Assembly (NCBI RefSeq): GCF_900105835.1
Contig: NZ_LT629783.1
Span: 1,178,001-1,242,000 of the forward strand
Direction: 5' to 3'
DNA length: 64,000 nucleotides
Source of the DNA: Pseudomonas fragi
GTDB lineage: Bacteria > Pseudomonadota > Gammaproteobacteria > Pseudomonadales > Pseudomonadaceae
Part shown: positions 14,008 through 62,814 of the stretch, piece after piece
How the letters are laid out: every line of letters begins with the position of its first letter
Numbering within the stretch: position 1 is the stretch's first letter
The notes under the pieces: model-generated
What the model saw: only the letters and a program-made list of their open reading frames with translations
What the model was told of the DNA's origin: nothing
The model's database searches: none
Made by a program: the position numbers and the translations under genes

Positions 14008-14025
14008 TGTTTTCTCCTGGCATGA

Positions 14026-14047
14026 AAAAACCCGCACTGGGCGGGTC
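14026..14047 (-). terminator. Terminator-like hairpin between gpV and the small ORF
   Basis: The minus RNA has ACCCGCCCAGTGCGGGT followed by TTTTTT. In prophage B a similar hairpin (60349-60377) marks the border of the sdhC/tetR insertion. Confidence 0.55.
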
Positions 14048-14052
14048 TTGGT

Positions 14053-37833: not shown

Positions 37834-38376
37834 GTGGCAGCTTTGGAACAGAGTGAAAAGATCTACAGAGCAACAGTTAAGACAAGTCGAAAATATCCGA
37901 AAAGGCTTACGGACTATATTGATGCGTTAGTTAAGCATGGACGATTATTGGAGGCCAAGCACTTTTTCTTAGATCTGTGCCAATTGGGCCCCAATCATCC
38001 AAAAACCATACGACTCGGTTATACGATAGCAATTGCAACTTTTGACAACGATTGGATTTATAAATACGACCAGCTTTTAACCAACTCTACAAAAGACAGC
38101 AGTGAAGTGTACTGGTACCGCTTGCGCTATTATCATTCACAAAACAACATCACGGCCTGCGAAACCACAAGCTGTGAGTTGCTTAAGGTTAAATTGAACA
38201 CTGACCGCCTATCAACAATTATTGAGGTTTGTATGGCGCGAAGAAGCTACTTAATAGCTCAGTCGCTAGCAGAGTACTTATCAATAAACCACGTAACACT
38301 AACCCCTCAATACAACAAACTGCTTAAGCAAATAGTCATAACTAGGCTCACACATTCTATTCAGAGGTACCTATGA
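37834..38376 (+). CDS. TPR-like helical protein, partner of HEPN gene
   Basis: This 180-residue protein is composed of helix pairs resembling tetratricopeptide repeats (YIDALVKHGRLLEAKHFFLDLCQLGPNHPKTIRLGYTIAIA; VYWYRLRYYHSQNNITACETTSCELLKV). It starts with GTG at 37834 (a TTG at 37843 is an alternative). Its stop overlaps the next start by 4 bases, so the two form one translational unit. Strong AT bias sets it apart from the phage. A sensor or antitoxin-like partner is one possibility. Confidence 0.5.
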   Translation: MAALEQSEKIYRATVKTSRKYPKRLTDYIDALVKHGRLLEAKHFFLDLCQLGPNHPKTIRLGYTIAIATFDNDWIYKYDQLLTNSTKDSSEVYWYRLRYYHSQNNITACETTSCELLKVKLNTDRLSTIIEVCMARRSYLIAQSLAEYLSINHVTLTPQYNKLLKQIVITRLTHSIQRYL

Positions 38377-39359
38377 CCAGCTATTTGGTTGTAAAAATTT
38401 TGGATGACAGAAGCTTTAGTCTTCCTTCCACTTTAAACTTTGGCCCTGTTGAGCTTCGATCTTATTCGGCCGATACCAAATATGAAGTTAGCGCACTTGA
38501 AAAATCCGCATCTGAAAACGGGCTTGACTACGAAAAACATAAAGTATGCGCAAGAATTGCCACAATAGTTGAATGCGAAAATCATAGCGAAGCTGTGCAT
38601 ACCGCTGACACCAGATTCCTTGAGGTTCTTGACTTCAAGTCTACAGAATATTCGACATCTACAATAAAGACCTCCCAAATTGGGCTGATAAAGGACCTGT
38701 CATCCGGCGAAATCACATCCATTACAAGAACAGGATTTCAACCATCTCTCGCGTTTGTAATGCATAATGGAAGCATACAATATGTTGATACTACAGTTTA
38801 CTTACTTTCGCTCAAAAACGAGCTTTGCGACCGATACAGACGGTCTTTACACTGGGCAAGAAATAGCAAGAACGAGACAAATCCTCAGCTGAGAATCATA
38901 TTTTTATGGTTTGCCTTAGAAGCACTATTAAAAGCAGATGAACACGATAACTGCGTAGAAAGCTACATTAGATTATTTATAGGATTCCCAAACGGACAAC
39001 AGCAATGGGTAATATCGCCATTAACCAAAGAAAAGTTAGAGAACCACCCTAGATATCAACACTGGAAAAAACAGCTTATTGAAATAGTCAAGGAGATTCG
39101 AGATTTTCGGAACGACTCTGTCCACTCAGGGTTTCGAAGCATGGACTTCACAAAAGAAAAACTTGAATTATTTAGCACAATTATGATTTATGCCGTAAGC
39201 AGGTGCCAAGCTGGTGTAATGCAGGGCTTATTAAACAACTTAGAAACCTTAGTCGAATTCAAAGAGTATGCAGTACCATTATTCGAGAACAACAAAAATC
39301 TCATCAATGACATCCATAACAATATCATCTACTCTTTAGATCACCCCATCACTTACTAA
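38373..39359 (+). CDS. HEPN (Apea-like) protein
   Basis: This 328-residue protein has a beta-rich N-terminal half and a helical C-terminal half. The latter has QLRIIFLWFALEALLKADEHDN and IVKEIRDFRNDSVHSGFRS, with the HEPN Arg-x4-His motif (RNDSVH). This arrangement resembles Apea-like HEPN proteins linked to anti-phage functions. It is the second gene of a two-gene unit at the left edge of prophage B. Ribonuclease activity is inferred from the motif only. Confidence 0.6.
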   Translation: MTSYLVVKILDDRSFSLPSTLNFGPVELRSYSADTKYEVSALEKSASENGLDYEKHKVCARIATIVECENHSEAVHTADTRFLEVLDFKSTEYSTSTIKTSQIGLIKDLSSGEITSITRTGFQPSLAFVMHNGSIQYVDTTVYLLSLKNELCDRYRRSLHWARNSKNETNPQLRIIFLWFALEALLKADEHDNCVESYIRLFIGFPNGQQQWVISPLTKEKLENHPRYQHWKKQLIEIVKEIRDFRNDSVHSGFRSMDFTKEKLELFSTIMIYAVSRCQAGVMQGLLNNLETLVEFKEYAVPLFENNKNLINDIHNNIIYSLDHPITY

Positions 39360-40225: not shown

Positions 40226-41887
40226 GTGCACATAGAATCGATACGTCTGATCAACTTCAAAAAATTCAAGGATCAGACTTTTGACTTCAACGAAGACGTG
40301 AATATTTTCGTAGGTGATAACAATTCTGGCAAAAGCACGATCCTGGAAGCTTTGGAGATCGTACTCAATTTTCAGTATCGCGGTCGGCCATTCAATAGCG
40401 AATTTTCCCCTGATCTATTCAACGCAGAGACAGTCGCTGCGTTCAGAGCCTCGCCAAAAACGCCTGCAGACTTACCTACCCTCGTGATCGAGGCGTACAT
40501 GAAGAACCTGCCCGACTACCGCGGTGCGAACAACAGTTTGAAGAAAGATGCTCAGGGGGTTCAGATCAAAGCCAGCTTTGATCCAGATTTTACTGATGCC
40601 TATGACGCTTACCTAGCCTCCGGTGCCGCGATAACCAGCATCCCAGTGGAATTCTACCAAGTTGAATGGATGGATTTTGCCTGGAATGTTATCAAACCGA
40701 TGACCAAGCAATTTAGAGCGCTCTACATCGACCCCACTCGCATTCATCCCACCTTCGGCAAAAATCAGTACATCTCGAATGTGCTGAGCACCGCACTCAG
40801 AAAGGACGAAGAATACCGTTTGAGCCTGAACTACCGTGAGACCCTCCAATCCTTTAACAATACAGATGAGGTTACCACCGTCAACAAGGGTTTGGATTCC
40901 GATAACAGGATCACGGAAAAGAAGCTGACCATCGCCGCCAACACCATGCCCGCAGGCGCTCTCCAGAACGCTCTGCAACTTGAAGTAAATGCAGTGCCGT
41001 TCCACATGATCGGTAAGGGTGAGCAGAGCAAGGTACAAATCAAGCTGGCCCTGCACAACAAGTCAAAAGACATCGACCTAGTGATGATGGAGGAGCCGGA
41101 AAATCACCTCTCGCATGTCGAACTGAGCAAGTTGGTGCAAGACATCGAGGATCAGCGAGACGGCAAGCAGCTTTTCCTGACCACCCACAGTTCCTATGTT
41201 CTGAACAAACTGAGCCTCAATAAAATCTGCTTGCTGCATGACGGATACAAGAGACTTCACCTCTTGGACAAAGTGGTGGTCAAGACGCTGAAGCGGTTAC
41301 CAGGCTACGACACGCTCCGTGTCGCGCTCTCGAAGAAGGTGGTGCTGGTCGAAGGCCCCTCTGATGAGTTGATACTCAAAAAGCTCTACAGAGACACTCA
41401 CAAGGGGCGACTGCCAGAGCAGGACGGGATCGATATCATTGTGGTACGTGGCGTCGGGTTCAAGACGTTCATTGCGATCGGCAAAGAAATTGGTACCGCA
41501 ATTAATGTCCTGCGGGATAACGATGGCAATTACGAAAGGAACATCGTTGAAGCGGGTAAGGAATACATTGCTTTCCCAAACATAAAGCTGGTCTCTTCAA
41601 AAAACGACAATGAGTTTTCGCTGGAGCCAGCGATGATTTTAGCCAATGCCACATCTGAAAAAGAGTTGCAGGCATTTGCAGAAATTGTCCTATCCACCCA
41701 AACCTTTAAACGGCTCGCTGCCAAACCTACCTTTGCTGAAAAGCTCGAGTTTATCGTGGAGTGGTTTAGAAGCAGTGACGGCGACGGGAAAGGTAAAAAG
41801 AAAGTCGATTCTGCCATCAGCCTTTTCGAGACTGAGAAGCCGTTCAAATATCCAGTATTCCTCACTGAGGTACTGAATTTTGCCTAA
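40226..41887 (+). CDS. OLD-family ATPase/TOPRIM nuclease (Gabija GajA-like)
   Basis: This 553-residue protein has an ABC-type ATPase N-terminus with Walker A (FVGDNNSGKSTILEAL), Walker B (LVMMEEPENHLSHVEL) and H-loop (LTTHSSYVLNKLSL). A C-terminal TOPRIM domain follows, with the Glu in VLVEGPSDEL and the DxD in VLRDNDGN. This order is that of class 2 OLD nucleases, which are paired with a UvrD-type helicase as here, the Gabija arrangement. It uses a GTG start at 40226 and overlaps the helicase gene by 8 bases. Confidence 0.85.
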   Translation: MHIESIRLINFKKFKDQTFDFNEDVNIFVGDNNSGKSTILEALEIVLNFQYRGRPFNSEFSPDLFNAETVAAFRASPKTPADLPTLVIEAYMKNLPDYRGANNSLKKDAQGVQIKASFDPDFTDAYDAYLASGAAITSIPVEFYQVEWMDFAWNVIKPMTKQFRALYIDPTRIHPTFGKNQYISNVLSTALRKDEEYRLSLNYRETLQSFNNTDEVTTVNKGLDSDNRITEKKLTIAANTMPAGALQNALQLEVNAVPFHMIGKGEQSKVQIKLALHNKSKDIDLVMMEEPENHLSHVELSKLVQDIEDQRDGKQLFLTTHSSYVLNKLSLNKICLLHDGYKRLHLLDKVVVKTLKRLPGYDTLRVALSKKVVLVEGPSDELILKKLYRDTHKGRLPEQDGIDIIVVRGVGFKTFIAIGKEIGTAINVLRDNDGNYERNIVEAGKEYIAFPNIKLVSSKNDNEFSLEPAMILANATSEKELQAFAEIVLSTQTFKRLAAKPTFAEKLEFIVEWFRSSDGDGKGKKKVDSAISLFETEKPFKYPVFLTEVLNFA

Positions 41888-43052
41888 TAAACTCTGCATG
41901 GCGGGTGCCGGCTCAGGCAAGACTCACAAGGTAATTGTCGAATCAATCGCCGAAATCGAGCGCGGGGGAAAGGTTCTGGTGGTGACCTACACGACAAGTA
42001 ATCAGCAGGAACTGAGACGTCGATTTCTGGAGGTTTTTGGTACGCACAGTGATCGGTTCGTGGTCAAAGGTCTGTTCTCTTTTTACTTGGAAGACATGGT
42101 GAGGCCGTATCAGCAGGCATTGTTCTCGCGGCGGATCGATGGCATCTGCTTCAACCAGCGCAATCCTCATATGAAGCCAAATTCAACGTTTATGCTCCCG
42201 GGGCGTGCGGAGCAACTGGACGACAAAAGCTACAACCCAAAACATTTTCTGACCTCATGCAAGACTAAGGCTCACACCGGCTTTCTCGCAAAACTGGCGA
42301 GCCGGATCATGAAGGCCACGAAAAACTCTGCTGCAGTACGACTAGGGGAGATTTACACCCAGGTGTTCTTTGATGAGGTCCAAGATCTGGTTGGGTGGGA
42401 CTATGAGGTGCTAAAGGGATTGAACAAAACGATGCCGACACCTATCACGTGCGTGGGAGATTTCCGGCAGACGGTGTACGAAACAACGTTTGGCCAAAAA
42501 GCGCCTAAAACAGCCGCTGAGAAAATCGCTGCTTTCAAGTCCATGGACTTTGTGGAGGAGGCATTAGTCCTCAACCGGCGGTGCATTCAGCCGATTTGTG
42601 ACGTCGCGGACGCAGTACACAAGGGCGCTTATGAAGCTACGAAATCAGCGGTTAAAGAGACCCCACCTGAATTTGCCCATCACCTCGGCACCTTCATCGT
42701 CAAGGAGTCGGACGTTGCCGAATACATCAAAGTGTTTGACCCTATGGTTCTGCGCTGGAGTGTAACATCCGGGGCAAAGCTTCTTCCTGCCCAGGCGCGA
42801 TGCTACAACTTTGGAGGGAGTAAGGGGCTAGGTTTTGAACGGGTGTTGGTGCTTCCCGCGGAAAGCCAACTGCACTTCGTGCTTGACGGCCAAAAACCGT
42901 TTCCAGCGAAGGACGAAACAGCTCAGAACAAGATGTACGTCGCCATCACACGCGCGCGATTCAGTCTTGGATTCATTGTGCCGGACAAGAAGGCCGAAGG
43001 CTTGCGCTTCCCAGTTTGGGCAGCTGAACCTCAAAAAAGAGATCAACTATGA
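41880..43052 (+). CDS. UvrD-like SF1 helicase (Gabija GajB-like)
   Basis: This 390-residue protein starts with TTG at 41880 (GAGG eight bases before) and goes at once into Walker A (MAGAGSGKTHKVI). Further helicase motifs are Ia (VVTYTTSNQQELRRR), II (VFFDEVQDLVGWDYEVL), III (CVGDFRQTVYE), IV (LVLNRRCIQPI), V (FGGSKGLGFERVLVL) and VI (NKMYVAITRARFSLGF). It is shorter than GajB (about 490 residues) but complete in motifs. It is translationally coupled to the OLD nuclease gene. Together they should form an anti-phage nuclease complex. Confidence 0.8.
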   Translation: MPNKLCMAGAGSGKTHKVIVESIAEIERGGKVLVVTYTTSNQQELRRRFLEVFGTHSDRFVVKGLFSFYLEDMVRPYQQALFSRRIDGICFNQRNPHMKPNSTFMLPGRAEQLDDKSYNPKHFLTSCKTKAHTGFLAKLASRIMKATKNSAAVRLGEIYTQVFFDEVQDLVGWDYEVLKGLNKTMPTPITCVGDFRQTVYETTFGQKAPKTAAEKIAAFKSMDFVEEALVLNRRCIQPICDVADAVHKGAYEATKSAVKETPPEFAHHLGTFIVKESDVAEYIKVFDPMVLRWSVTSGAKLLPAQARCYNFGGSKGLGFERVLVLPAESQLHFVLDGQKPFPAKDETAQNKMYVAITRARFSLGFIVPDKKAEGLRFPVWAAEPQKRDQL

Positions 43053-58931: not shown

Positions 58932-59814
58932 CGGTGCCACCGAACACCACGCTAAAGCCCGTGCAATTGGCGGCCTGATGGTCCAGCACCACCACATCCT
59001 CAACCGGGTGGACCAGCTCCACGCGCTGCACCAGCGAAACATGCAAGGCGGCATGGATAGCTGATCGACGGATATCCCGCCCCAAGCGGCGCTGGGTGTT
59101 GATATAGCGATCCAGGGACGACCGGGCTTCAGCCAGGATCAGCTCAATCTCCGGGCCCGGGTAGAGGTACAAAACAGCCTCAATCCGGTAGTCGATCAGA
59201 CCGGCGGACTGGACGATCACGCGGTCGCCTAACGGCCGCACATCCTCATCACTGAGGGCCACCCGAACCACCTCAAGCAAATCCTCAGAAGCCACGCCAT
59301 CGCCAACCCGGCTAAGAATACTGACCTCAACCATGGCGGGGCTTGGACTGACGACCCGGGCATCCGCCACCCGACCATCGGCCGACATGGCGTGAAATAC
59401 GTAAGCATCCCGAGGGCCAGCAATCGACAGGCCCTCAAATGCAAACAGCGTGCGCTCCACCAGGGAGTCGTCCGACTCGTATTGCGCCTCGATCGGCGGT
59501 ACTGCACCAGGATCAGCGGCGACCACGGTCAGACGTTTTACGTTGTAGTTGGCCGCTAGGTGATCCACATCGCTGCCCCGGGCAAAGGCCAACAGCAGCG
59601 CCTTGGCCGCATCGTTGATCCGCGCCCGGCTCATCATCTTGTCGTAAGCGGCCTTTTCCAGCAGCTTGACCACCGGGTCGGACTCCAGCGCTGCCGACCA
59701 GTTGTCCCCCATCAAGCCGCGAAAGTCGGTCAGCGCCTCTTGGTACAACGACTCAAAATCCAGCGGCTCCAGCACAAGCGGGGCCGGTAAACGGGACAGG
59801 TCAAGGGTGCTCAT
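58924..59814 (-). CDS. J: Baseplate assembly protein J (prophage B copy)
   Basis: This 296-residue paralogue of 12592-13482 has the same motifs (LDFESLYQEALTDFRGLMGDNW; FARGSDVDHLAANYNVKRL; RRLGRDIRRSAIHAALHVSLVQRVEL). The coupling overlaps with W and I are the same. Confidence 0.92.
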   Translation of the reverse strand: MSTLDLSRLPAPLVLEPLDFESLYQEALTDFRGLMGDNWSAALESDPVVKLLEKAAYDKMMSRARINDAAKALLLAFARGSDVDHLAANYNVKRLTVVAADPGAVPPIEAQYESDDSLVERTLFAFEGLSIAGPRDAYVFHAMSADGRVADARVVSPSPAMVEVSILSRVGDGVASEDLLEVVRVALSDEDVRPLGDRVIVQSAGLIDYRIEAVLYLYPGPEIELILAEARSSLDRYINTQRRLGRDIRRSAIHAALHVSLVQRVELVHPVEDVVVLDHQAANCTGFSVVFGGTDE

Positions 59815-60137
59815 ACGTTCACTTCCAATAGCTGACTGTCGCCCTTGTAGATACCCGACAGGCGAAAAGTGATACGCCCATCAAGAACGGACAGGACTTG
59901 AACCTGCGTCAGTTCCAGACGCGGCTCCCAGCGTTTCAGGGCGCGGGCCGCCTCAGCCTGCACAGCGCTTTTCCAGCCCTCACTGACGGGCAGATCGACA
60001 AAGCGCCGGATGGTGCTGCCGTATTCCGGGCGCATTAGCCGGGACCCCAGCGGCGTGGTCAAAATGTCTTCAATGGACTGCCTCAGATGCTTAACGCCCG
60101 AGATAGGCAGCCCGGTACGGCGGTCCATTCCGATCAT
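59811..60137 (-). CDS. W: Baseplate protein W (prophage B copy)
   Basis: This 108-residue gp25-like protein reads HLRQSIEDILTTPLGSRLMRPEYGSTIRRFVDLPVSEGWKSAVQ. It matches the A copy apart from the last residues (YKGDSQLLEVNV). Confidence 0.92.
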   Translation of the reverse strand: MIGMDRRTGLPISGVKHLRQSIEDILTTPLGSRLMRPEYGSTIRRFVDLPVSEGWKSAVQAEAARALKRWEPRLELTQVQVLSVLDGRITFRLSGIYKGDSQLLEVNV

Positions 60138-60141
60138 GGGG

Positions 60142-60336
60142 CTACTCCGGCAGACGCTCTAAATCAGGGTGTTTATCGAGAAATGCCTGCGCTTCGGCGT
60201 CCGACGCCTCGACGTGGTGCTTGCTGACCTGCAGCAGGCGGTCGTCGCTCATCACCAGAGTGCGTGAGATAAAAGCCCGGTCGCGGTAAACCACCGGGCT
60301 GACAGGCTTGTCGATCGGGACGGCTTTGCTCGTCAT
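60142..60336 (-). CDS. Small conserved phage protein before W (prophage B copy)
   Basis: This 64-residue homologue of 13810-14007 reads YRDRAFISRTLVMSDDRLLQVSKHHVEASDAEAQAFLDKHPDLERLPE. The start at 60336 is chosen by comparison. It is the last phage gene before the sdhC/tetR insertion. Confidence 0.65.
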   Translation of the reverse strand: MTSKAVPIDKPVSPVVYRDRAFISRTLVMSDDRLLQVSKHHVEASDAEAQAFLDKHPDLERLPE

Positions 60337-60348
60337 CGTTTTCTCCAG

Positions 60349-60377
60349 GACAAAAAAAACCCGCAAAATGCGGGCTG
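60349..60377 (-). terminator. Terminator at the border of the sdhC insertion
   Basis: The minus RNA has CAGCCCGCATTTTGCGGGTT followed by TTTTTT. It matches the hairpin at 14026-14047, so the insertion point lies just to its right. Confidence 0.6.
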
Positions 60378-60500
60378 GGGGTACGGTCAAAAGGCTAGGG
60401 TTTAAGCATCAGAAACAAACACATTCAATACTGGCTGCTCAAAAGCTCAAAACTTGGCAATTCGACCGTGAATACTTTTCGATTTTCGATTAAGGAAAAC

Positions 60501-60878
60501 TCAAGTCCAAAGCCAAACACCAGCAACAGCGATCAAGACGATAGAAATCACGAGCACAATCATAGATCCGCGCTTACCGCCTTCCAGCGTCTCACCAACC
60601 CCCATATCCATGATGAGATGTCTTACACCTGCGACCAAGTGATAAGCCAGTGCTGACACCACCACCCAAACAACGATCTTCGCAAATGGCGTGGACAACA
60701 TGGCCTTCATTTCGTTGAAACCTTCCTCGGAGCTCAGCGATTTTCCCAGGGCGTACAACAGTAAGAACACGCAGGGAAAGAGAATCAGTCCTGAGATCCG
60801 GTGCAATATCGATGTGATAGCGGTAATCGGATACTTGAAGGTTCCAAGGTCAAGGTTCACGGGTCTTTTCTGGTTCAT
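60501..60878 (-). CDS. sdhC: Succinate dehydrogenase cytochrome b556 subunit (SdhC) encoded in prophage
   Basis: This 125-residue protein is a full-length SdhC: MNQKRPVNLDLGTFKYPITAITSILHRISGLILF with the quinone-site SxxHRxSG, three membrane segments (LILFPCVFLLLYALG; IVVWVVVSALAYHLVAGVRHLIM; MIVLVISIVLIAVAGVWLW) and the haem-ligand His in AYHLVAG with VRHLIMDMGVGETLEGG. AGGA lies six bases before the ATG. No sdhD, sdhA or sdhB is beside it, so it would have to join the host complex. It is inserted between phage genes V and W and faces the same way as late transcription; a divergent TetR gene controls it in all likelihood. Confidence 0.88.
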   Translation of the reverse strand: MNQKRPVNLDLGTFKYPITAITSILHRISGLILFPCVFLLLYALGKSLSSEEGFNEMKAMLSTPFAKIVVWVVVSALAYHLVAGVRHLIMDMGVGETLEGGKRGSMIVLVISIVLIAVAGVWLWT

Positions 60879-60884
60879 ATCCAA

Positions 60885-61101
60885 TCCTGATGTAGGAAAA
60901 AGGGCTTATCTATTTGGCCCCAGTTGCGTCTCGGTGCTACGACAAAACTCGGCGCAGCTATGTCTGTAGAGGGGCGAGGCTGCCATTCATCAATGGGTAC
61001 ATCGCAATCCTAAACTAAACCAACCGGTTCAGTTTACAGCTTAGACGCTGACCTAGCACAAGCTTTTTCGCTTACCATGCCCCTTTAATTGAGACCATCT
61101 G
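60885..61101. promoter_or_regulatory. sdhC-tetR divergent control region
   Basis: A 217-base region between divergent genes holds both promoters, the operator palindrome at 61011-61036 and no ORF. Clear -35/-10 pairs cannot be assigned with confidence. Confidence 0.5.
61011..61036. promoter_or_regulatory. TetR-type operator palindrome
   Basis: Arms TAAACTAAACC (61011-61021) and GGTTCAGTTTA (61026-61036) are inverted repeats matching at 10 of 11 positions, separated by AACC. They lie between sdhC and tetR, the expected site of a TetR-family repressor controlling both. Confidence 0.7.
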
Positions 61102-61725
61102 ATGAAGAAAAGAACCGAAGCTAGACGTCTAGCTATCCGCGATGCCGCAGGGCAAGCTTTCAAAGAACTCGGATTTGAGGGCACCTCAATGGCTCACCTG
61201 GCACAGCGGCTGGGCTATTCGAAAGCCACGCTTTACTCCTACTTTGATTCCAAAGAAGAACTGTTCTATGAAGTGTTGATGGCTTCAACAAGCTCTCAAA
61301 TGGATGCCATTTTTAAGATTTTAGAGAAGCCGCTATTTGAGTTACGCAAGGATTTGACATTGCTTGGCGAGAAAATTACCGAGCTCCTCTATTCAGAAGA
61401 AGTAATGGCCGTACGACGTCTGCTTTTGTCCGAGGCAGGTCGCAAGAACGAACTGGGTCTGAAGTGTTATGAGGCTGGTCCCGCTCAGTTTCTTGTTGTT
61501 ATATCCCAAAGCCTGCAATGCGCTATGAACCGTGGGTTGTTGCGACAATCCGACCCTGTCGTTGCGGCGCTTCATTGGCGGGCACTTCTGGAATCCGAAT
61601 GGATCGATCATTTCCTGTTCTCGACTTCAACACAGGACAGTGAGGCAAAGGTCCGGGCCACAACAGCGCGCGCCGTGGAAGCATTTCTACTGGCCTATGG
61701 TGCTTCCAGCTCGGACAAGAATTGA
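61102..61725 (+). CDS. TetR/AcrR-family transcriptional regulator
   Basis: This 207-residue regulator has an N-terminal TetR HTH: AIRDAAGQAFKELGFEGTSMAHLAQRLGYSKATLYSYFDSKEELFYEVL. A helical ligand-binding domain follows (LLLSEAGRKNELGLKCYEAGPAQFLVVISQSLQ; AALHWRALLESEWIDHFLF). It is divergent from sdhC and convergent with gpV, whose stop lies 20 bases away. It is opposite to the late operon. The ligand is unknown; an inhibitor of respiration or a quinone-like compound would fit an SdhC target. Confidence 0.88.
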   Translation: MKKRTEARRLAIRDAAGQAFKELGFEGTSMAHLAQRLGYSKATLYSYFDSKEELFYEVLMASTSSQMDAIFKILEKPLFELRKDLTLLGEKITELLYSEEVMAVRRLLLSEAGRKNELGLKCYEAGPAQFLVVISQSLQCAMNRGLLRQSDPVVAALHWRALLESEWIDHFLFSTSTQDSEAKVRATTARAVEAFLLAYGASSSDKN

Positions 61726-61744
61726 CGCAGTGGCAACCAACACC

Positions 61745-62326
61745 TCAATGCTTGTGATTGGGCGTGTTGCCGCTTGTGTCGATAATTGCCCCGCCACCGT
61801 TGATATTGCCCATTACGCGTAACCCGCCGTTGATCAACACTTCACCGTAGATCGTCAGGTCGCCATCGAGTGCAATTGCCCCGGACGTGACGACCACCGC
61901 GTTATCCGTAACGGTCGCCGATGAACCACCCACCTTGATATCCACCGAGCCGGTCGGCAGCACAATGCTGTAACTGTGGGCCTGCCAGTCATAAGTCAGC
62001 GACCCGCCATCATCGAACAGCCAGAGCTCGACGTGATCGCGGTTATCCGGGGCGGGGCCGGCATCGCCAAACAATCCCGGTACAAAGGTGCCTTGTGAAA
62101 CGTCACCACTTGGGCTGAGCAAAGCGCCCTGCTCGCCCATGCTGGGCACCCGCCAGTGCCGCGCCTTGCCCGCCGCCTGACTGTGCCAGCGCACCCAGGC
62201 ACTGACCCATTCGCCGTCCGACACCCGGCACACGGGCGGCATGGTCGCAAGGTCCAGGGCGACCACATAACAGCCCTTGACCACCCCGGCGATCATGCGG
62301 TCGTGTTCGGCAAGTGCGTGGCTCAT
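61745..62326 (-). CDS. V: Baseplate assembly protein V, spike (prophage B copy)
   Basis: This 193-residue gpV resembles 14053-14634: GEQGALLSPSGDVSQGTFVPGLFGDAG, the beta-helix part (VDIKVGGSSATVTDNAVVVTSGAIALDGDLTIYG) and the NTPNHKH end. It has an ATG start where A uses GTG. It is separated from the W-side genes by the sdhC/tetR insertion. A one-mismatch palindrome (ATTACGCGTAAC) lies at 61812-61823. Confidence 0.9.
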   Translation of the reverse strand: MSHALAEHDRMIAGVVKGCYVVALDLATMPPVCRVSDGEWVSAWVRWHSQAAGKARHWRVPSMGEQGALLSPSGDVSQGTFVPGLFGDAGPAPDNRDHVELWLFDDGGSLTYDWQAHSYSIVLPTGSVDIKVGGSSATVTDNAVVVTSGAIALDGDLTIYGEVLINGGLRVMGNINGGGAIIDTSGNTPNHKH

Positions 62327-62814
62327 GGGTCAACCTCAACATTCACGCTGAACACCAGCGAACCGGGCGGCTCATCCGGCCACGGCCATTCCGTTTCACC
62401 TAGGTAAATCGTCTGGGTCCACTCCACCAGCCACACGGTGTAGCCATCAAGCTCCGGGCGGGTCCAGTCCTGGGTTGAACGCTTGAACTCGGCAGGCTCA
62501 ACCGCCAGCCCCCACGTCTGAGCGCGCAACAACACCGCCAATTGCGTGGCAAGGTGAATGGCCTGCTGGTAATGCTGATCACGGATCACATCAACAATCA
62601 CCCGTGCTTCAAAGGTAACGTTCAGCGTGCTTTCGCCGGTGCCGATATCGGTACCCGGCTCGATCTCGGCGATGTCGAGAAATACGGCTGGCAGCGGGAT
62701 GTGCTGCTCGATGTCAGGCCAGAAGCGGACCAACTGAACACCTGACAGCTGCTCTTGCAGATGCTGTTCAATGGTTTGATACAACAGGTCGAGGCTAAAC
62801 GGCTGTTCAGACAC
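62323..62814 (-). CDS. Tail terminator/completion-like protein
   Basis: This 163-residue protein uses a GTG start and has LDIAEIEPGTDIGTGESTLNVTFEARVIVDVIRDQHYQQAIHLATQLAVLLRAQTWG and an end (WPWPDEPPGSLVFSVNVEVDP) shared with the A protein at 14631-15143; the N-terminal part is different. The shared end fits the preserved tail module, the rest goes with the B head. Confidence 0.55.
   Translation of the reverse strand: MSEQPFSLDLLYQTIEQHLQEQLSGVQLVRFWPDIEQHIPLPAVFLDIAEIEPGTDIGTGESTLNVTFEARVIVDVIRDQHYQQAIHLATQLAVLLRAQTWGLAVEPAEFKRSTQDWTRPELDGYTVWLVEWTQTIYLGETEWPWPDEPPGSLVFSVNVEVDP

What the first reader, a model, noticed from the sequence alone, without database searches (positions are those of the whole stretch)
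60337..61744. sdhC plus TetR moron inserted in the late tail operon of prophage B
Between genes W (small ORF side) and V, prophage A has only 45 bases (14008-14052) while prophage B has about 1.4 kb with a full-length SdhC and a divergent TetR regulator. SdhC keeps the SxxHRxSG motif and haem His, but no other SDH subunit is present. A near-perfect operator palindrome lies between the two genes. This looks like a regulated phage-borne replacement of one respiratory-complex subunit, possibly giving resistance to SDH inhibitors or altering respiration of the lysogen.
Basis: partly seen in the sequence, partly recalled or inferred. Interest (0 to 1): 0.78.

Follow-up and report, generated by a model that had tools for sequence, protein, structure and literature searches.

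The report
Prophage-borne switchable respiratory enzyme subunit
A Pseudomonas prophage carries a spare gene for one membrane subunit of the respiratory enzyme succinate dehydrogenase, next to a drug-sensor type of repressor; it may let the bacterium swap that subunit when the normal enzyme is blocked, but this has not been tested.

Summary
Prophage B has an AT-rich insert (about 60381-61744) between baseplate gene V and the small ORF before W. It holds an intact 125-aa SdhC (60501-60878, -) and a divergent TetR (61102-61725, +). No sdhD, sdhA or sdhB was found in the window plus 33 kb; the host's complete sdhCDAB lies elsewhere, its SdhC 67% identical.

The pair also exists outside the phage: another Pseudomonas has it on its chromosome (SdhC 73%, TetR 60%) with the same operator, and seven SdhC/TetR cluster pairs share contig lengths. 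The SdhC groups with a stand-alone plasmid SdhC that is >=99% identical in 76 plasmid records of eight genera. Catalytic and haem residues are kept; the start of the quinone-site helix differs from the host's own subunit. The TetR's relatives without sdhC lie near drug-efflux genes in 6 of 7 cases examined.

Best reading: inducible target substitution. A small molecule releases TetR, and the alternative SdhC joins the host's SdhD/A/B to give an enzyme with an altered quinone pocket. Ligand, assembly and resistance are inferred. Fungal alt-SDHC is the nearest tested analogue; my searches of open-access papers showed no bacterial or phage case. Only one prophage lineage is known to carry it.

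The parts
60381..61744 (.). foreign insert (moron) between V and the phage hairpin; edges good to about 20 bases
   Evidence: alignment of prophage A with B; GC 48.8% against 57.0 and 60.3%
60501..60878 (-). sdhC, alternative succinate dehydrogenase cytochrome b556 subunit, 125 aa plus stop
61102..61725 (+). tetR, repressor with AefR-like C-terminal domain, 207 aa plus stop
61011..61036 (.). operator palindrome TAAACTAAACC-N4-GGTTCAGTTTA
   Evidence: also in G196
60358..60376 (-). hairpin and T tract after sdhC; phage backbone, shared with prophage A
61745..62326 (-). baseplate assembly gene V, upstream flank
   Evidence: PHROG 6142, 9992
60142..60336 (-). small conserved phage ORF, downstream flank
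   Evidence: PHROG 7077
59811..60137 (-). baseplate wedge gene W
   Evidence: PHROG 43
14008..14052 (.). matching site in prophage A, without the insert

Best explanation
A moron for inducible target substitution. TetR sits on the operator between the two genes and keeps them low in the lysogen (inferred). A small molecule, most likely a quinone-site inhibitor of succinate dehydrogenase or a related compound, binds the AefR-like domain and releases TetR (inferred). The phage SdhC then joins the host's SdhD, SdhA and SdhB in place of the host SdhC (inferred). The hybrid complex keeps the catalytic Ser/Arg and the haem ligand but has a differently shaped quinone pocket, so electron flow through SDH goes on while the host's own enzyme is blocked (inferred). 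Shown here: intact genes, their arrangement and insertion, the pair and operator in a second, non-phage locus, a clade of stand-alone SdhCs, and the residue differences.
For: Host SDH operon intact elsewhere, no other SDH subunit in the prophage. Same divergent pair in G196 on a 636-kb contig that also holds that genome's own sdhC; no phage genes seen by eye, no sdhD/A/B within 20 kb. Seven SdhC and TetR cluster pairs with equal longest-contig length. Operator block 22 of 26 conserved, shuffle maximum 18 in 200. Against G196, pN 0.166 and pS 0.80 for SdhC. Catalytic Ser27, Arg31 and haem His84 in 33 of 33 clade clusters; position 20 (E. coli numbers) is Tyr in 33 of 33 and Leu in 91 of 91 other listed SdhC clusters. 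Against its host the phage SdhC differs at 20, 24, 25 and 28. TetR relatives without sdhC near efflux genes in 6 of 7 examined. Fungal alt-SDHC works this way and its key residue matches position 28 by motif (PMC6941823).
Against: No ligand, expression or assembly data. Ile28 is the common residue in the genus and the host's Phe28 is the odd one (5 of 26 rows), so that part of the difference is the host's doing. The related plasmid SdhC has Leu at 20 and no TetR, so these two traits do not go with mobility in general. The phage case is single. That 20 and 25 line the pocket is recalled, not tested. 8 of 15 TetR clusters at 55% identity or more are not paired by the contig-length test.
Confidence: 0.5

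Rival explanations
1. Respiratory tuning: the alternative SdhC gives SDH a changed quinone affinity or less superoxide, switched on by a stress metabolite that TetR senses.
For: The plasmid relative sits among redox genes: glutaredoxin 3 in 4 of 4 loci read, ferredoxin reductase and a sulfite-oxidase-like protein in 3 of 4. The Zymoseptoria paper names metabolic adaptation as another role of SDHC paralogues.
Against: The TetR's relatives lie near drug-efflux genes in 6 of 7 cases, and the plasmid gene lacks the TetR.
Confidence: 0.22
2. Passenger cargo: an accessory chromosomal module caught by the phage and not yet useful or lost.
For: Only one prophage lineage has it; the V-W site also takes unrelated cargo (G061).
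Against: Both genes are intact, and three related clusters of the SdhC are 94-99% identical; constraint on the family is strong, although that was measured between phage and non-phage copies.
Confidence: 0.17
3. Lytic takeover: late-operon transcription makes SdhC during lysis to change or poison host SDH for the phage.
For: sdhC runs with the late genes, between V and W.
Against: It has its own regulator and operator, and the same unit exists without a phage; catalytic and haem residues are kept.
Confidence: 0.08

Closest known systems
Fungal alt-SDHC (ZtSDHC3, Zymoseptoria tritici; PMC6941823, abstract and passages seen)
   Same: a dispensable extra SDHC without other subunits; there shown to join the other three and to give inhibitor resistance through one quinone-site residue
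   Different: eukaryotic and chromosomal, not on a phage; no dedicated ligand-sensing repressor mentioned in what I saw; resistance is tested there and not here
Phage morons (lysogenic conversion genes; concept recalled)
   Same: low-GC cargo with its own control region placed between late genes, absent from the sister prophage
   Different: the cargo is one subunit of a central respiratory complex; apart from two doubtful records none was found in the phage sets searched
TetR-type repressors divergent from efflux genes (AefR-like C-terminal domain, PF14246)
   Same: family, divergent layout, palindromic operator
   Different: the regulated neighbour is sdhC and not an efflux part
Stand-alone sdhC of broad-host plasmids
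   Same: same clade in the free tree (100/99); no other SDH subunit in the three loci tested
   Different: no TetR, Leu at position 20, redox-gene surroundings; about 60% identical

Membership tests
SdhC (succinate dehydrogenase cytochrome b556 subunit) | matches TIGR02970 and Sdh_cyt above curated cut-offs | tested here: met
   134.7 bits against 52.3 and 109.3 against 25.8
SdhC (succinate dehydrogenase cytochrome b556 subunit) | catalytic Ser27/Arg31 and haem His84 kept | tested here: met
SdhC (succinate dehydrogenase cytochrome b556 subunit) | encoded with sdhD, sdhA, sdhB | tested here: not met
   no such gene in the window plus 33 kb; stand-alone. This is usual, not defining for the protein itself
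SdhC (succinate dehydrogenase cytochrome b556 subunit) | assembles into active complex II | not testable with these tools
   needs complementation
TetR family, AefR-like | TetR_N and TetR_C_7 above cut-offs | tested here: met
   54.1 against 24 and 78.2 against 22 bits
TetR family, AefR-like | binds the palindrome between the two genes | tested here: inconclusive
   site conserved in two loci; binding not tested
Phage moron | cargo present in one and absent from a related phage at the same site | tested here: met
   prophage A against B; 24 of 26 V loci have 379 bases or less at this site
Phage moron | own transcription unit | tested here: inconclusive
   operator and divergent layout present; the simple sigma-70 scan found no promoter (0 found, 1.5 expected); the hairpin is the phage's own
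Target-paralogue resistance (alt-SDHC kind) | extra target subunit with changed inhibitor site | tested here: inconclusive
   residues 20, 24, 25 and 28 differ from the host's SdhC; their place in the pocket is partly recalled
Target-paralogue resistance (alt-SDHC kind) | gives resistance to an SDH inhibitor | not testable with these tools
   needs an inhibitor assay

The most novel reading that the evidence does not exclude
Bacteria have a mobile class of stand-alone, swappable SdhC subunits, carried by a phage (with a ligand-sensing TetR) and by broad-host plasmids, that rebuilds the host's respiratory complex II around its quinone site in answer to natural SDH inhibitors: an inducible bacterial counterpart of fungal alt-SDHC.
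Probability: 0.4. Interest if true: 0.85.

Novelty: new variant of a known kind. Interest (0 to 1): 0.6.

Why it matters
If true, a temperate phage passes on an on-demand replacement for one subunit of an enzyme of the TCA cycle and the respiratory chain. It would become testable whether microbes fight over succinate dehydrogenase in nature (promysalin, siccanin, atpenins) and carry mobile countermeasures, and it would suggest a role for an sdhC gene that many plasmids carry without a known reason.

Tried and rejected
Misassembled host operon: rejected; the complete host sdhCDAB is elsewhere. Recent duplicate of the host gene: rejected; 67% identity and a separate clade. Terminator as part of the moron: rejected; prophage A has it. 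Common phage gene: not supported; three single-protein and two profile scans of viral contigs all returned one contig, the near-identical prophage (these reach only relatives that share short patterns). The insert's DNA has no match in the phage or plasmid sets. The only SdhC hits in 50,697 phage records are two 254-kb records named Acinetobacter phage, which look to me like bacterial DNA; not followed up. The place of the plasmid SdhC is unsure: the free tree joins it to the TetR-linked kind (100/99), but tests do not reject it with the chromosomal genes (p 0.10), nor the TetR-linked ones as a clade without it (p 0.43) or joined to the chromosomal ones without it (p 0.09). The 69 loci offered to that tree include the genus loci most like the window's SdhC, and identical sequences were dropped, so its 26 chromosomal rows are no random sample; one search repeats the residue count on all 124 SdhC clusters listed by two searches, which are also ranked by likeness. 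dN/dS could not be given because dS is saturated. A search for papers on SdhC residues near atpenin gave nothing of use, and the promysalin target paper is not held. No structure prediction was run. Literature searches without a bacterial mobile or phage-borne sdhC in their listings: (open-access library only, listings seen; one search shows 20 of 28 and 15 of 20).

Full report
What is there. The insert lies between baseplate gene V (61745-62326, -) and a small conserved phage ORF (60142-60336, -) followed by W (59811-60137, -). V, W and the next two genes match tail and baseplate PHROGs; terminase, portal and head protease of the same prophage lie beyond the window, and a gene with lambda-type integrase domains follows about 18 kb beyond the insert. 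SdhC (60501-60878, -) runs with the late genes, TetR (61102-61725, +) against them. Aligning prophage A with B puts the foreign DNA at about 60381-61744; the hairpin with its T tract at 60358-60376 is in both prophages. GC is 48.8% in the insert, 57.0 and 60.3% beside it. The simple promoter scan found no sigma-70-like site in 59800-62400 (0 found, 1.5 expected). The site takes other cargo too: of 26 V loci (in 22 of 115 genomes), 24 have 379 bases or less between V and the next gene found; this one has about 1.4 kb and G061 about 1.2 kb, holding a 182-aa ORF that looks like a lipoprotein, opposite to the late genes.

It is not the host's operon. The genome has one other SdhC match, 67% identical, at C1:4897062, followed by SdhD, SdhA and SdhB, each above an NCBIfam cut-off. 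The host's SdhD, SdhA and SdhB have no relative in the window plus the next 33 kb (best E 0.33).

The pair is a module that exists outside the phage. Among 398 genomes of the genus, TetR matches at E 1e-40 or better are in three: this one, G196 and G305; 1 of 194 and 1 of 57 in two further draws (the window's genome and G196 themselves) and 2 of 369 of the class at 1e-38. G196 has SdhC (73%) and TetR (60%) divergently on a contig that also holds its own sdhC; by eye I saw no phage genes in 20 kb, and tblastn found no sdhD/A/B there. G305's TetR (42%) stands instead beside a membrane-fusion protein and an AcrB-type pump. Seven TetR clusters pair with seven SdhC clusters by equal longest-contig length (4775887, 1949, 2398, 138860, 1417, 5735926, 29152), which I read as linkage; the other 8 of 15 TetR clusters at 55% identity or more do not pair by this measure. 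Between G196 and the window the intergenic DNA has diverged except for one block, CTAAACTAAACCAMCYGGTYYAGTTT: 22 of 26 matches, best of 200 shuffled pairs 18. The palindrome alone is weak evidence: 6 and 3 of 500 shuffles of the two regions do as well. The Ramlibacter relative has TAAACTGAACCAGTCAGTTCA before its tetR, divergent from an outer-membrane efflux gene.

The SdhC and mobile relatives. In one search, 396 of 398 genus genomes have an SdhC match and, by my reading of the table, eleven have more than one; one search searched these again. G000 and G196 have the TetR-linked kind, G090 three equal copies of the chromosomal kind, and eight a second SdhC 60% identical to the window's, with the same score in all eight. 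That gene is on plasmids: 76 of 72,556 PLSDB records at >=99% DNA identity (Acinetobacter 27, Pseudomonas 20, Klebsiella 15, Enterobacter 5, Citrobacter 4, Raoultella 3, Aeromonas 1, Escherichia 1) and 1 of 5,426 E. coli genomes. In the four plasmid loci I read, its neighbours include glutaredoxin 3, a heme-binding protein and an alcohol dehydrogenase, and in three of them ferredoxin reductase and a sulfite-oxidase-like protein (in the fourth the sdhC itself is in two pieces and not annotated). No TetR of this kind was found in five such loci. In a 68-row tree with few columns, 13 SdhCs of the TetR-linked type and the plasmid SdhC form one clade, 100/99, apart from 26 chromosomal-type rows. 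The plasmid branch is long, and the tests leave its place open (p 0.43, 0.10, 0.09).

What differs in the protein. Ser27, Arg31 and the haem ligand His84 (E. coli numbers) are kept in 33 of 33 clusters of the window's clade and in 91 of 91 other listed SdhC clusters. Position 20 is Tyr in 33 of 33 and Leu in 91 of 91; the plasmid SdhC has Leu. Position 25 is Ile, Leu or Val in the clade and Tyr in 84 of 91 others. Against its own host the phage SdhC differs at 20 (L to Y), 24 (G to A), 25 (V to I) and 28 (F to I). Phe28 is a peculiarity of this host's group (5 of 26 rows) and Ile28 the usual residue (87 of 91), so part of the difference comes from the host's side. By the motif SxLxR, position 28 matches A84 of Z. 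tritici SDHC (my alignment by eye). There a dispensable paralogue with Ile at that place joins the other subunits and gives resistance to a class of SDH inhibitors, and soybean rust became resistant by I86F at the matching place (PMC6941823, passages). That positions 20 and 25 line the pocket is recalled. Against G196, SdhC shows pN 0.166 and pS 0.80, TetR 0.287 and 0.86: protein changes are selected against.

How it most likely works. I examined seven relatives of the TetR that lack a neighbouring sdhC (33-51% identical: own genome, G305, G695, Ramlibacter, Variovorax, Rahnella, Novosphingobium). Six lie near efflux parts and one (Rahnella) near a FUSC transporter (five by Pfam, the Variovorax one by a predicted-resistance label, the Rahnella one by annotation). 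Seven weaker TetR hits of the host genome were not examined. This suggests a repressor that answers to foreign small molecules, here wired to an alternative drug target and not to a pump. Pseudomonas meets such molecules: promysalin from P. putida and the fungal siccanin inhibit Pseudomonas SDH (PMC10077553, passages). I hold inducible target substitution at 0.5, respiratory tuning at 0.22, passenger cargo at 0.17 and lytic takeover at 0.08.

Rarity and novelty. Phage-borne sdhC: one near-identical contig in viral contigs and two doubtful 254-kb records among 50,697 phage records. No bacterial mobile or phage-borne sdhC appeared in the listings, which cover open-access papers only. I rate it a new variant of known kinds (moron; target-paralogue resistance). 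Interest stays at 0.6 because the phage case is single and the function untested.

Noticed in passing
window 40226-43052 (+): GajA-GajB pair (Gabija-type defence; PADLOC E 1.8e-223 and 7.9e-140) between the integrase side of prophage A and the lysis end of prophage B.
   Followed up: partly
window 38373-39359 (+): ORF with weak CARF/HEPN-type matches (best E 1.5e-4), close to the Gabija pair.
   Followed up: no
L069 9967-10341 (-): Stand-alone sdhC at >=99% DNA identity in 76 plasmid records of eight genera, within a block of redox genes; I found no paper on it.
   Followed up: partly
L096 (G061), between V and W: A different cargo at the same phage site: a 182-aa ORF with a lipoprotein-like start.
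   Followed up: no
G000:C1:4897062-4897430; G196, G004, G090, G262: The chromosomal SdhC of this host's group has Val25 and Phe28 where 21 of 26 rows have Tyr and Ile: the host's own quinone site may be unusual.
   Followed up: no
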